Positions 58,172-64,000 of a stretch of 64,000 nt of DNA are shown here, one piece after another. The DNA is taken from the NCBI GenBank assembly GCA_019114515.1, contig DXFH01000001.1, forward strand, positions 62,001 to 126,000, read 5' to 3'. Each line of letters starts with the position of its first letter. Positions within the stretch are counted from its first letter, which is position 1. A program made the position numbers and the translations under genes. This stretch comes from Candidatus Limosilactobacillus merdigallinarum. Lineage in GTDB: Bacteria > Bacillota > Bacilli > Lactobacillales > Lactobacillaceae. The notes under the pieces were generated by a model, which ran no database searches, was not told the origin of the DNA, and was given only the letters and a program-made list of their open reading frames with translations.

Positions 58172-60418
58172 CTATTGATTTAATCCTTGTTCTACCATCT
58201 GGTGCACACACTGACGCATTGTCTGGATGTCCAATACTCCAGTGGCAAAGCCTTTTTGCACTAATTGGTCAGGCAAGTACTTGTCGTATTTATCAAAGTC
58301 GGGGACTTCACCATCAAAGACTAAGTCCATTGGGTCAAAATCTTTATCGGCTTCTTCCGCTAAGATTTGATAAAACTCTTTTTCACTCACATCCATTGAA
58401 AATTCCATGAAATATGGGCGGACGGAATTGAAGCCTCTTAAGCCGAGCCGTTTAGCACACTTCAGGCGTAATAGTCGCTCTAAGGCTAAGAAGGCATACG
58501 TACCCGTCCACGGGAATAGGCACCACATCTTGCCGCCTAAGTTGATCAATGGCTTCTTTAACATGCCACTGGCTTGGGCAGTTGCACGGGCATCAAGTAG
58601 GCGGGCCGTCGCATTCTTCATCAAGTAAGGATAATCTTGACTTTCCACCAACACTTTCCGCATCCGTTGCAGAATCCGTGGGTGAATATCACCGGGAACG
58701 TCGCCAAAATAAGCTGGTACCCGTCCCTTAACCTGGTGAGCGTATACCTGGTGGTGCTTGCGATCAACATCTTCAACCACCCATACCCGGCCGGCAATGG
58801 CAATCTTGTCACCAACCGGCGGCGGTTTCACGATCGTACCAAGTTCTTCGGATCCAGAGTGGACACTGTATTCTTCGTTTTCTGCAAAGACCGCATAAAA
58901 CTTAAAGTTGTTAACTACCCGTTCACCGGCCAGGCCGACAATTAGGCCGCCATTTTCGGTACGTTCAAGGTGGTCCGTTTTCAGCAAATGGTGCAGCAAC
59001 ACCTTAAAATCATCCGCCGTAATGTTGTCGAAATAAGGCAACGTTAAGATTCGGGATGCCAGTTCGGCTGGCGTCATTTCTCCACCGGCAGCCAGCGTGC
59101 TCATTGTTTGGTGGTACAGCAAGCTGTAAGGGTGGCGACCAGTCCGTGGCGGTTCAACGAAGCGATCTTCCAGGTAAAGCTGAATAATAGCGATTCCCTG
59201 CAGAAGCGGCCACGGAATCAGTTCCGGCAGCATTACCCGCGATTCTGGGTGTTCTTCGCGCATAACCAGCCACATTTCGGGCGGATTTCCCCGGCGACCA
59301 GTCCGTCCCAGTCGTTGTAGAAAACCAGTCACCGTAAACGGTGCGTCAATCTGGAAAGCCCGCTCTAAGCGACCAACATCGATGCCCAATTCCAAAGTCG
59401 CGGTGGCACAAGTGGTCATCATGGAATCTTCGTCCTTCATCGCTTCCTCAGCTGTTTGTCGAAAAGCAGTGGACAAATTACCATGGTGAATCATGAAACG
59501 ATCTGGTTCATGATTAGCCTCACAATAAGAGCGTAATGCCTGGCAGACCGCCTCACATTCCTCACGACTATTGGTGAAAACCAGACATTTCTTCCCCCGA
59601 GTATGCTCAAAGATATAGGCTAAACCGGGATCGGCCATTTGCGGCGCCTTATCCGTCTTTGGACCGAGCATCGGTTGCACTGTCTTAGTGATATTGGCGT
59701 TGTCCCCTGCCTGCACCGGATCCTTGTAAAAGTGTTCCATCGACAAGCGCCACACCTCATGAGTATCTTTAACTTTTGGCACTAGCGTTTTTCGATTACT
59801 GCCGGCCGATAGAAATTTACCAGCAGCAGTTGGATCACCAATCGTAGCCGACAAGCCAATCCGTCGCGGATTACAGCCAGCCACACGGGACAATCGCTGA
59901 ATTAAGCAGAAAGTCTGACCACCCCGGTCGCTGCGTAAAAATGAGTGAATTTCATCAATTACAATGAAGCGCAAGTCGCCAAATAAGCTCGGAATATCCA
60001 TGTGCTTATTAATCATCAATGACTCTAATGATTCCGGCGTGATCTGCAGAATACCACGCGGCTTGCGAATTAATGTCCGCTTTTGCGACTGAGCAACATC
60101 GCCATGCCAACGAGTAACCGGAATATGTGGTTCCCGGCACAGGTCACATAATCGCCCATATTGGTCGTTAATTAACGCCTTCAACGGCGCGATATATAAG
60201 CAACCCACCGAGTCTGCCGGATGCTCATCCAATAGTGTCAAGATCGGGAAAAAGGCCGCTTCTGTCTTGCCTGAGGCAGTCGGTGCTGATAGCAACACAT
60301 TATCATCACTGTTGAAAATGGCTTCACCAGCAGCTTGTTGGATGCCCCGTAGCTTTTGCCAGCCTTGCGAATAAATGTAATCTTGGATAAACGGCGCATA
60401 CCGTGAGAAGACATCCAT
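58172..60418 (-). CDS. SF2 helicase, Lhr/BrxHI-like (SngC-like)
   Basis: A 748-residue superfamily 2 DNA helicase. Motif I SAPTASGKTEAA, motif II DEIH (VIDEIHSF), motif III SAT (GLSATIG) and motif VI QRLGRTGRRG are present, so it should be active. After the two RecA domains comes a winged-helix region and a long C-terminal extension (GSEELGTIVKPPPVGDKIAIAG) as in Lhr and BrxHI proteins. AGGAGGG precedes the ATG. The ATPase gene ends 11 nt upstream, and this is the last gene of the three-gene operon. Expected to move along or unwind foreign DNA. Confidence 0.88.
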   Translation of the reverse strand: MDVFSRYAPFIQDYIYSQGWQKLRGIQQAAGEAIFNSDDNVLLSAPTASGKTEAAFFPILTLLDEHPADSVGCLYIAPLKALINDQYGRLCDLCREPHIPVTRWHGDVAQSQKRTLIRKPRGILQITPESLESLMINKHMDIPSLFGDLRFIVIDEIHSFLRSDRGGQTFCLIQRLSRVAGCNPRRIGLSATIGDPTAAGKFLSAGSNRKTLVPKVKDTHEVWRLSMEHFYKDPVQAGDNANITKTVQPMLGPKTDKAPQMADPGLAYIFEHTRGKKCLVFTNSREECEAVCQALRSYCEANHEPDRFMIHHGNLSTAFRQTAEEAMKDEDSMMTTCATATLELGIDVGRLERAFQIDAPFTVTGFLQRLGRTGRRGNPPEMWLVMREEHPESRVMLPELIPWPLLQGIAIIQLYLEDRFVEPPRTGRHPYSLLYHQTMSTLAAGGEMTPAELASRILTLPYFDNITADDFKVLLHHLLKTDHLERTENGGLIVGLAGERVVNNFKFYAVFAENEEYSVHSGSEELGTIVKPPPVGDKIAIAGRVWVVEDVDRKHHQVYAHQVKGRVPAYFGDVPGDIHPRILQRMRKVLVESQDYPYLMKNATARLLDARATAQASGMLKKPLINLGGKMWCLFPWTGTYAFLALERLLRLKCAKRLGLRGFNSVRPYFMEFSMDVSEKEFYQILAEEADKDFDPMDLVFDGEVPDFDKYDKYLPDQLVQKGFATGVLDIQTMRQCVHQMVEQGLNQ

Positions 60419-60429
60419 GCTTTTCCCTC

Positions 60430-61758
60430 CTAAATCTCAAATTCAGCGAATTGGTCGTCACTCTTGTTGGACACCGCATCCGACTGTGAATAATTAAATT
60501 GATCTGATTGCAATAACTCTTCAACTTTGGTGTCAGGATGCTGCCACAGAATATCAAGCAACTCAATAAAGTCACGGATAATTTCTCGGGGCGTGATATT
60601 TGAGCTGGCCCCAATACGGCCATACTCAATCTTAATAAACGTCGCTAAGTCATCCTCCGTGATTGTGCGTTCATAGCCGTAAAGCTGGGCATGCATATTA
60701 GCCAGCTTCTCAGTTAAGACCAGCATCTCTTCAGCCGTCAAGGACTCCAGTTTGATGACGGGGGCATACATATCTTGGGCCCCTTCCTTAGCAAACTTGC
60801 CCTGCGCCAGTCGTGACCGCAACGCTTCATAAGAGTATACACCCCGGCGCCGGTCTTCAATGGCCTGTGGCGTACCACACATGATAATTCCCAGGTACTT
60901 AGCCTTACCCTGCAACGTATCGTTATACATGGTCAAAATCTTTTCATAATTGTACTGCCGGCTAATGCTATTCGGGATCTTTGAAATATTAACCAGTTCG
61001 TCAATCATGATTATCATTCCTTGATAACCAGCTTGCTGGAAAAAGGCCGCAAAGAGTTTCAGGTATTCATACCAGTCATCGTCGTTGATGATGATATTGA
61101 CCCCTAACTCATTCTTGGCATCCGTCTTGCGGTTATATTCACCCCGGAACCATTTGATTACCTTGGCTTTGGTCTCATCATCACCAGTGATGTAGGCGTG
61201 ATAATACATGTTCAGTAATTTAGCGAAGTCGAATCCATGAACCAGCTCATTTAAAGACGAAATCACCTGATAAATCTGCTTATCAAAGGCACTTTCAAAG
61301 GCTGGGTCATCCGGTGTCAGGTTTTGTTGAATCGCTACTTGGCTTTGCACCGAACTGATCCAGCGATCCAAAACCAATGGCAGGGCTCCGCCTTCTGGAC
61401 GCGTTTTGGTCGACAAATTTTGAATTAATTCGCGGTAGGTCGCCAGTCCTTTACCATCACCTCCATGGAGACGGCGTTCGGGCGACAAATCACCATCGAC
61501 TACTACGAAACCGCGGTCCATCACGTAGTTACGAATAGTCTGCAACAGGAAACTCTTGCCGGAACCATAGCGCCCCATAATGAAGCGAAACGATGCACCG
61601 CCTTGGCTAATAATGTCGACATCATGGAGCAAGGCAGCAATTTCATTCTTCCTTCCGACCGTAATATAAGGAAGGCCGATGCGCGGCACCACCCCACCTT
61701 TTAACGAATTCAATATGGTTTGCGCAATTCTTTTTGGTACCCGTTTAGTCTTGGGCAT
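60430..61758 (-). CDS. BrxD-like P-loop ATPase, DUF2791 (SngB-like)
   Basis: A 442-residue ATP-binding protein. Walker A is GRYGSGKSF near residue 65, Walker B is MIIMIDEL near 255, and an arginine-rich sensor region follows (RRRGVYSYEALRSRL). It is closest to the DUF2791/BrxD group found in type 2 BREX next to BrxHI helicases. The ATG at 61758 (MPKTKRVPK) has AGGTG upstream and overlaps the end of the TerB gene by 14 nt. It should load or power the helicase. Confidence 0.86.
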   Translation of the reverse strand: MPKTKRVPKRIAQTILNSLKGGVVPRIGLPYITVGRKNEIAALLHDVDIISQGGASFRFIMGRYGSGKSFLLQTIRNYVMDRGFVVVDGDLSPERRLHGGDGKGLATYRELIQNLSTKTRPEGGALPLVLDRWISSVQSQVAIQQNLTPDDPAFESAFDKQIYQVISSLNELVHGFDFAKLLNMYYHAYITGDDETKAKVIKWFRGEYNRKTDAKNELGVNIIINDDDWYEYLKLFAAFFQQAGYQGMIIMIDELVNISKIPNSISRQYNYEKILTMYNDTLQGKAKYLGIIMCGTPQAIEDRRRGVYSYEALRSRLAQGKFAKEGAQDMYAPVIKLESLTAEEMLVLTEKLANMHAQLYGYERTITEDDLATFIKIEYGRIGASSNITPREIIRDFIELLDILWQHPDTKVEELLQSDQFNYSQSDAVSNKSDDQFAEFEI

Positions 61759-63697
61759 GTGATTCACCTGCTTTCAATAAATCCTCTATATCTGGGCGAT
61801 AATCTTCAACGATTTGTGGTTGCCCTTGATCATCAAATTCAATCACCGTGTCACCGATGACTTCCATCATTTTTTCGTTGATTGAATCAGCCAAAATGCT
61901 GGCCATCAAGTGGTGGTCACGTAAATAATCTTGCCATGGCTGCCCCTTAAGCAAATGCGCTAAGAAGTAGCTTTCGTCATTTGACAATTGCGGTTGGTCT
62001 TCGTCATCATCCGTTTCGTCAGCAAAAGATGGTTCAAAGACGGCCGCTGTATCAGCAGATTTTGTTAATGATATCGTTGACTGACTGGCGACAGCATTAG
62101 CAGCCGCTTCCTCATACTCATCCTGAGTGGCTTCTGCATCCTCTGCTTGTCTTTCTTCTTCGGTTAATAGGCTCTCTTGAGTTTCACTAGCATCGTCACG
62201 AATTTTTTGTAAGTTTGCATGACTGAGATCCAGCTTAGGTCGGTGGGCAATTAGTTGCTCTTCTCGGTATTGCTGAATTGCTTTTTTAACGGCTGCCAAC
62301 TCATAATCGGGCACATCCTGGGGCTTTAATGGTCGTCCTTCATGTGTCGCTAGCCGAATGAGTCGGTCAATTTCATGCAGTAAGTGATTAATATTTTGTT
62401 TGCGTCCCTTCACCGGCGTAAACGTCTGACGGCGCCATTTGCCCCATTCGCAAACATACTCGCGGGCATCGTCAATCTTGTATTGCGTAGTACGTACTGG
62501 TTGCCGATCATAGAACACCGCGTTACCAAACAGGTGCACCTGGACTTCTCCTCGCCAGCCCAATAAGTTTTGCATGATGTTTACCTGAGATTCTTTTAGC
62601 AAGTTCGCCCAAGTCAGCTGCACAATGCGATAAACCACTGCTGGATTATTCTTCATCAACGGGCACTTGTCTAAATGGTAGCTTGCTAATGAAATTAATG
62701 CTTGATAAACTTCGTCACCCTTTGTATCGTCAACATTTTTAAGCACTTCATAAGCATGATCAATTTTGATTTCATCACCAAATTCGGCCTGCTTTTCCTG
62801 GTCACCCATTTGGTAATAGACAACGTAGTCTTTTCGCCACTGTGCCAAATACTTTAACATCTGTTCGTCTGCATAATTAGCATATTGCCGCGGAAAAGAT
62901 GCTAGTTTTTGGTAGCCATCCTGTACGGAAGATACCCCAATCTGGTTTAACAATTCATATATATAAACGTAGGCAAACGATGTCGGCGCCTTTTCAATTT
63001 TTCCTTTACGTAATTTTGTCCGCCAAGTGAAGTAACCGCGCAATTGACCGACTGTCATATCGTGGTAGGTTGGGAAGAAGTGCCGAAAATCACCCAAATA
63101 TTCATAATCATCCTCATAATCGGCCATCAGCTTTCCCTGCTGGTAGAAATTCTGATTACGACCTTTCAAAGGAGGCAAAGTGTAGTCATATTTTGCCCGC
63201 ATTTTCCGAAGCGGTTCTGGCATTTTGAGTTGTTGCTTTGGTTGAAAATGGGCTGGCTTTGGCAATGGTTGATCACTAAAACCATCCTGCTCATCACCGA
63301 ATGGCAGGACCGTAATTAAGTGCTCTTTCTCCTGCACGACCTGTGTCTTACGGGCACGGTCAAACGCGTGATCCAGTGCTTCTTTAACTGCTGCAACCGG
63401 TGTCTGGTCATCCAAACGAATACTGACCCAGGAACCGTCAGCCATCCTGGTTGGTGCATTAAACACTCCCTGTTGGCGTAACTTAGTGGCACCCTCACCA
63501 TAATGGATTTCCAGAAAATTTTGTCGCCTGTCTTCTGTCAGATGCGTCACATCCGGGTTGCGGCTAATCAATAAAGCAAACCACTTGCCGGTAACCGGAC
63601 ACACGAGCACGCAGTCATCAGGAAAGCGCCGCCACTTGTACTGACCGTCCACGCCATATTGAGCTTTCACATAACGCAGAACCTGCATCCGGTTCAT
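61745..63697 (-). CDS. TerB-N/TerB-C protein with N-terminal YjbR-like domain (SngA-like)
   Basis: A 650-residue protein. Residues ~1-110 look like an MmcQ/YjbR domain (MNRMQVLRYVKAQYGVDGQY, then WRRFPDDCVLVCPVTGKWFALL). Residues ~185-400 read as TerB-N, with YDYTLPPLKGRNQNFYQQGK and FRHFFPTYHDMTVGQLRGYF; a TerB-C-like end follows an acidic linker (EEERQAEDAEATQDEYEEAAAN). AGGAGG lies 7 nt before the ATG at 63697; the GTG of the track is inside the site. First gene of the operon. TerB-N/C proteins are found with an ATPase and helicase in the Shango defence system. Confidence 0.82.
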   Translation of the reverse strand: MNRMQVLRYVKAQYGVDGQYKWRRFPDDCVLVCPVTGKWFALLISRNPDVTHLTEDRRQNFLEIHYGEGATKLRQQGVFNAPTRMADGSWVSIRLDDQTPVAAVKEALDHAFDRARKTQVVQEKEHLITVLPFGDEQDGFSDQPLPKPAHFQPKQQLKMPEPLRKMRAKYDYTLPPLKGRNQNFYQQGKLMADYEDDYEYLGDFRHFFPTYHDMTVGQLRGYFTWRTKLRKGKIEKAPTSFAYVYIYELLNQIGVSSVQDGYQKLASFPRQYANYADEQMLKYLAQWRKDYVVYYQMGDQEKQAEFGDEIKIDHAYEVLKNVDDTKGDEVYQALISLASYHLDKCPLMKNNPAVVYRIVQLTWANLLKESQVNIMQNLLGWRGEVQVHLFGNAVFYDRQPVRTTQYKIDDAREYVCEWGKWRRQTFTPVKGRKQNINHLLHEIDRLIRLATHEGRPLKPQDVPDYELAAVKKAIQQYREEQLIAHRPKLDLSHANLQKIRDDASETQESLLTEEERQAEDAEATQDEYEEAAANAVASQSTISLTKSADTAAVFEPSFADETDDDEDQPQLSNDESYFLAHLLKGQPWQDYLRDHHLMASILADSINEKMMEVIGDTVIEFDDQGQPQIVEDYRPDIEDLLKAGESHAQD

Positions 63698-63741
63698 GTT
63701 CACACCTCCTAACAGAATGTTTGTTCGTTTTACGCTTTTTA

Positions 63742-63770: not shown

Positions 63771-63850
63771 ATGATACACGCAAACAAAAACGAGGTATTC
63801 GCTTGTAGATTGACCATGACAGTCATTAAATGATGCGCCACAAAGCCTAA

Positions 63851-63997
63851 AAATCAGCTTGCACACTGGGGCTCAGTGGTGAGATTGTCGTAAGCGCAGA
63901 CTGCGCTTACGACAAGACCAAGCTTTGAGACAATAGAATCATTGGCTCAAAGTTGTGTCCGCCACGATCCAGCCCCAGAAACGGTGCAAGCTGGTTT
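63851..63997. repeat. Type 1 structured repeat, copy D
   Basis: Closing inverted repeat CAGCTTGCAC / GTGCAAGCTG (63855-63864, 63984-63993) and inner GGGGCT / AGCCCC. Inside: a perfect 15-bp hairpin TTGTCGTAAGCGCAG / CTGCGCTTACGACAA and a second, CTTTGAG / CTCAAAG. Together they make a three-way junction. It lies upstream of the defence operon. Confidence 0.78.
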
Positions 63998-64000
63998 AGT

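What the first reader, a model, noticed from the sequence alone, without database searches (positions are those of the whole stretch)
63360..63697. YjbR/MmcQ-like domain fused to the N-terminus of the TerB protein
The first ~110 residues read like a free-standing MmcQ/YjbR DNA-binding protein, followed by a linker and then TerB-N. I do not recall this fusion in described Shango proteins. It might supply DNA or nucleotide sensing to the system.
Basis: inference. Interest (0 to 1): 0.7.

Follow-up and report, generated by a model that had tools for sequence, protein, structure and literature searches.

The report
YjbR domain on Shango SngA protein
A small domain of the YjbR family really is fused to the front of this bacterium's anti-phage Shango protein SngA; it marks a whole branch of Shango systems in gut bacteria rather than a one-off, and that YjbR occurs fused to TerB proteins was already noted in print.

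Summary
Residues 1-117 of the 650-aa SngA (window 63347-63697, minus strand) form a true MmcQ/YjbR domain. Pfam PF04237 is just over its cut-off on the N-terminal segment; a family profile matches the solved YjbR protein PSPTO_3016 at E=2e-17; an AlphaFold model superposes on four YjbR structures (Z 10.5-16.6). A low-confidence linker joins it to TerB_N and TerB_C. The gene heads a complete Shango operon (SngA-SngB-SngC).

It is not unique. 79 of the 80 best loci kept from a scan of ~85,000 prokaryote genomes carry the domain (the other record is truncated). On an SngB tree all YjbR-bearing systems form one branch, compatible with a single gain. The nearest outside relatives, and Paenibacillus, E. 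coli, Klebsiella, Sulfitobacter and archaeal SngA, lack it. The domain is under purifying selection.

A YjbR-TerB fusion was mentioned in print in 2020 (PMC7641849, citing a 2012 paper); no Shango paper I could read mentions it. Function is untested. DNA binding is plausible by family, but similarity to MotA is weak (Z~5) and the domain is slightly acidic in most members. Best reading: a tethered recognition module of one Shango clade.

The parts
61745..63697 (-). sngA, 650 aa: YjbR - linker - TerB_N - TerB_C
   Evidence: ORF and Pfam; PADLOC SngA E=5.2e-74
63347..63697 (-). MmcQ/YjbR domain, residues 1-117
   Evidence: Pfam PF04237; PSPTO_3016 E=2e-17; model matches four YjbR structures Z 10.5-16.6
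63233..63346 (-). probably flexible linker, residues 118-155
   Evidence: block pLDDT 35-56 over residues ~121-150; least conserved segment between close relatives, 61% identity
62591..63244 (-). TerB_N domain, residues 152-369
   Evidence: Pfam PF13208 E=4.3e-35
61784..62275 (-). TerB_C domain, residues 475-638
   Evidence: Pfam PF15615 E=3.4e-19; last ~80 residues resemble a winged helix, Z~6 only
63705..63710 (-). ribosome-binding site AGGAGG upstream of the sngA ATG
   Evidence: sequence read directly
60430..61767 (-). sngB, BrxD-like ATPase, overlaps the end of sngA by 23 nt
   Evidence: PADLOC SngB E=2.4e-194; Pfam BrxC_BrxD E=8.9e-172
58172..60418 (-). sngC, DEAD/DEAH (Lhr/BrxHI-like) helicase
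   Evidence: PADLOC SngC E=4.3e-275

Best explanation
The gene encodes the SngA subunit of a complete Shango anti-phage system in which a YjbR domain was added once to the N-terminus of SngA, in an ancestor whose SngA probably already lacked the central TerB domain found in proteobacterial SngA. The YjbR domain sits on a probably flexible tether ahead of TerB_N. Shown: domain identity, operon, clade-wide retention, purifying selection. Inferred: SngA is the recognition/adaptor subunit; its YjbR domain makes an additional contact (most likely with DNA) that helps bring the SngB ATPase and SngC helicase to their target. The confidence below is for the mechanism; the anatomy alone I hold at about 0.97.
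For: YjbR identity. Complete operon; 70 of 80 relatives have SngA-SngB-SngC intact and in this order, most of the rest are cut by contig ends. 79 of 80 loci carry the domain; 68 SngA frames contain only the TerB_N search motif, so were not selected through the N-domain pattern, and 67 of those have the domain, the other being truncated. One branch on the SngB trees (one change, SH-aLRT 85; 94/89, one change in 96% of bootstrap trees). SngA-borne YjbR domains separate from free-standing YjbR proteins of the same family, 99/99 (ignoring one mis-extracted row). pN/pS 0.09 and dN/dS 0.10-0.22 for the YjbR segment, similar to or a little above the rest; 90% identity to L. secaliphilus against 78% in the TerB part. 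Linker low pLDDT. No standalone YjbR gene was seen beside YjbR-less Shango operons, within the ~1.5 kb flanks held. DNA-binding is the published proposal for the family (PMC7641849).
Against: No experiment. MotA C-domain similarity is only Z~5, under the tool's trust level. Median net charge -2 and pI 5.7 over 77 members argue against a general strong DNA-backbone contact. Nothing here shows that SngA is the sensor.
Confidence: 0.38

Rival explanations
1. The YjbR domain is a protein-interaction module: it docks SngA to SngB/SngC or to a phage or host protein, and does not bind DNA.
For: Mildly acidic domain in most members; flexible tether; weak structural similarities also to other alpha/beta domains such as secretion chaperones, which are not diagnostic.
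Against: The family's published proposal is DNA binding; no coevolution or complex model was tested.
Confidence: 0.3
2. The domain is an autoregulator: SngA binds its own promoter through YjbR and limits expression of the operon.
For: YjbR resembles the MotA transcription factor DNA-binding domain weakly; the SngA C-terminus is winged-helix-like, Z~6.
Against: No shared operator was sought or found; the region upstream of sngA in the window is occupied by a genome-wide dispersed repeat, which is not specific to this gene.
Confidence: 0.1
3. A passive fusion without function in defence (hitch-hiking).
For: Only the absence of functional data.
Against: Retained in every full-length member examined from Lactobacillaceae to Lachnospiraceae, Oscillospiraceae and Erysipelotrichaceae, with purifying selection.
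Confidence: 0.05

Closest known systems
Shango (SngA-SngB-SngC), E. coli and P. aeruginosa PA14 (PMC10250203)
   Same: Three-gene order, SngB BrxD-like ATPase, SngC helicase, SngA with TerB_N and TerB_C
   Different: E. coli/Klebsiella SngA (769-775 aa) have a central TerB domain PF05099 and no YjbR; the window's SngA has YjbR and no detectable PF05099. The PA14 protein itself was not examined.
MmcQ/YjbR family PF04237 (PSPTO_3016, E. coli YjbR, DR2400)
   Same: Fold and full-length sequence profile match
   Different: Those are small single-domain proteins; here it is the N-terminal module of a 650-aa protein
MmcQ/YjbR-TerB fusions mentioned in PMC7641849, citing Anantharaman et al. 2012
   Same: Same pair of domain families fused
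   Different: The 2012 paper was not readable here, so it is not known whether the proteins it lists are SngA or what gene context they have
DUF1831-YjbR-EVE fusions (PMC7641849)
   Same: A YjbR domain in a defence-associated multidomain protein
   Different: Partner is the modified-base-binding EVE domain; the same genome holds one such gene, interrupted by a stop

Membership tests
Shango | SngA with TerB_N and TerB_C | tested here: met
   Pfam E=4.3e-35 and 3.4e-19; PADLOC SngA E=5.2e-74
Shango | adjacent SngB ATPase and SngC helicase in one operon | tested here: met
   PADLOC SngB E=2.4e-194, SngC E=4.3e-275
Shango | TerB domain PF05099, listed for Shango in PMC10952713 | tested here: inconclusive
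   Not detected by Pfam at E<=1 in the window protein, nor in the Paenibacillus and other Firmicutes SngA scanned; present in E. coli, Klebsiella, Pantoea, Sulfitobacter, Cetobacterium and archaeal ones. PADLOC still calls the window protein SngA.
Shango | protects against phage | not testable with these tools
   -
MmcQ/YjbR (PF04237) | profile match over the Pfam cut-off | tested here: met
   30.8 bits on the N-terminal segment, cut-off 30.1; 27.3 when the whole protein is scanned; 38 of 77 relatives match at E<=0.01
MmcQ/YjbR (PF04237) | fold of solved members | tested here: met
   Z 16.6, 12.3, 12.1, 10.5 to 3h9x, 2a1v, 2kfp, 2fki
MmcQ/YjbR (PF04237) | DNA binding | not testable with these tools
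   Only proposed for the family

The most novel reading that the evidence does not exclude
The N-terminus of SngA is the exchangeable recognition module of Shango: YjbR in one clade, TM2 membrane segments or large uncharacterised extensions in others, nothing in the rest, so that different Shango systems are aimed at different cues.
Probability: 0.2. Interest if true: 0.55.

Novelty: new variant of a known kind. Interest (0 to 1): 0.32.

Why it matters
How Shango recognises infection was not described in any paper I could read. A clade in which SngA carries an extra, conserved, separately folding domain on a tether gives a clean deletion or swap experiment on the subunit whose role is least understood. 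It also shows that defence annotation tools detect these systems while missing the extra domain. The fusion itself is not new to the literature, so the advance is modest.

Tried and rejected
A one-off or assembly artefact: rejected, the domain is in 79 of 80 relatives. A misread start codon joining two genes: rejected, ATG with AGGAGG, continuous frame, conserved spacing. YjbR as a replacement of the TerB core in one step: not supported, since YjbR-less neighbours (L122, L123) and Paenibacillus also lack PF05099. An accessory fourth gene: the recurrent neighbours are metabolic genes of the local chromosome, none shared across the clade. Carriage on viruses: none in viral contigs. Fold searches with the full model gave no TerB-like match, which is uninformative at this length. 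Anantharaman et al. 2012 and Feldmann et al. 2012 are not held. In one search the row L001_free was cut wrongly by my script (a second, spurious hit replaced the first) and is ignored.

Full report
WHAT IS THERE. On the minus strand the window holds three genes in Shango order: sngA 61745-63697, sngB 60430-61767 and sngC 58172-60418, matching PADLOC SngA (5e-74), SngB (2e-194) and SngC (4e-275). SngA starts at ATG 63697 behind AGGAGG. Pfam finds TerB_N at 152-369, TerB_C at 475-638 and YjbR at 13-113, but not the TerB core PF05099. The PADLOC SngA profile aligns only from residue 138, so its model has no YjbR part.

IS THE YjbR DOMAIN REAL. The Pfam score is marginal when the whole protein is scanned (27.3 bits, cut-off 30.1) and just over the cut-off on the N-terminal segment (30.8 bits, E=4.9e-7; 31 bits). 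Stronger evidence comes from relatives: a profile of 8 N-domains hits the solved YjbR protein PSPTO_3016 at 7.6e-13 and one of 77 at 2e-17, aligned over the whole domain. The AlphaFold model of residues 1-163 (mean pLDDT 85.9) finds PSPTO_3016, E. coli YjbR and DR2400 as its top Foldseek matches and superposes on them with Z 10.5-16.6, well above the next row, 7.2. Only half of the relatives (38 of 77) match Pfam YjbR themselves at E<=0.01, so Pfam-based surveys would miss many.

HOW COMMON IS IT. In a sample of 395 genomes of the window's order, the complete YjbR-SngA proteins come from one genus of the family besides the window's own; one search added one each in another species of the window's genus and in a third genus (G921, G923). 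A scan of genome contigs found 145 relatives; the best 80 were kept. These are Lactobacillus and Limosilactobacillus, and then mostly metagenome bins of Lachnospiraceae, Oscillospiraceae, other Clostridia, Erysipelotrichaceae, and a few labelled Chloroflexota, Desulfovibrio or Bacteroidales. 79 of 80 carry the domain, the last is a truncated record. Of the SngA frames, 68 contain the TerB_N search motif but not the N-domain motif, and 67 of these have the domain; ranking by similarity to the window protein still favours domain-bearing relatives, so the 80 are not an unbiased census. In the phylum sample (398 genomes, 22 besides the window's own with an SngA match) none of the SngA frames has the domain.

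ONE ORIGIN. An SngB tree of 71 systems puts all YjbR-bearing ones on one side of a branch (SH-aLRT 85); a careful tree of 35 gives 94/89 and one change in 96% of bootstrap trees. The nearest outsiders (L121, L122, L123) lack YjbR and lack PF05099 or any other Pfam N-domain where scanned. One gain is the simplest reading; the number of close outsiders is small. The YjbR domains of SngA also separate from free-standing YjbR proteins of Lactobacillaceae (99/99, ignoring one row that my script cut wrongly).

SELECTION AND LAYOUT. Between the window protein and L. secaliphilus the YjbR segment is 90% identical, the linker 61%, the TerB part 78%; synonymous sites are nearly saturated, pN/pS 0.09 for YjbR. 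Two Lactobacillus pairs give dN/dS 0.10 and 0.22 for YjbR against 0.11-0.13 for the rest. So the domain is kept by selection about as strongly as the rest. In the full-length model the stretch ~121-150 has pLDDT 35-56, compatible with a flexible tether; relative domain positions are not known.

OTHER SngA ARCHITECTURES. E. coli and Klebsiella, Pantoea, Sulfitobacter, Cetobacterium and haloarchaeal SngA are TerB_N-TerB-TerB_C without YjbR, though TerB falls just under its cut-off in the haloarchaeal protein. Paenibacillus and several other Firmicutes are short TerB_N-TerB_C forms. Some have an N-terminal TM2 membrane domain (L014, L131) or a ~380-aa extension with no Pfam match (L124, L128). 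Hence the N-terminus varies, with YjbR as one clade's version.

HOW IT MAY WORK. Shown: domain identity, operon, retention. Inferred: SngA as adaptor, YjbR as an extra contact. DNA binding is the published proposal for YjbR (PMC7641849, by analogy with T4 MotA). Against an easy assumption: MotA similarity is Z~5, and the domain has median net charge -2 over 77 members, though +4 in the window. I hold DNA contact slightly ahead of a protein-docking role; nucleotide sensing has no evidence.

WHAT IS KNOWN. [quoted passage not shown] 2012. The P. aeruginosa Shango paper PMC10250203 mentions TerB, helicase and ATPase domains in the passages found; no paper in the library that names Shango also names YjbR. 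So the fusion is not new, its identification as a Shango clade seems not to have been written down in what I could read. The 2012 paper was not readable, and may already show the gene context.

Noticed in passing
window 63845-64000: A dispersed ~150-nt repeat directly upstream of sngA with a strong branched fold (z -10.7); over ten full or partial copies elsewhere in the genome.
   Followed up: partly
G000:C24:1-1934 (L138, L172): Remnants of a second Shango in the same genome: frameshifted SngA pieces with the start of a YjbR-like N-terminus, followed by an SngC piece.
   Followed up: partly
L001 1132-2160, minus strand: A DUF1831-like/YjbR/EVE-like gene of the same genome with an in-frame stop at codon 49; the DUF1831 and EVE parts were recognised by eye, not tested.
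   Followed up: partly
L014, L131; L124, L127-L129: SngA proteins with other N-termini: a TM2 membrane domain, or ~380 residues without a Pfam match, in which I saw possible helicase-like motifs by eye.
   Followed up: partly
L016; L012/L051; L093; L147: Broken SngA genes in several genomes: an apparent mobile-element insertion in L016, in-frame stops in L012/L051 and L093, an annotated frameshift in E. coli STEC367.
   Followed up: no
window SngA residues 571-649 (61751-61987): The C-terminus looks like a winged helix in the model (Z~6 to LysR- and MarR-type domains), below the tool's level of trust.
   Followed up: no
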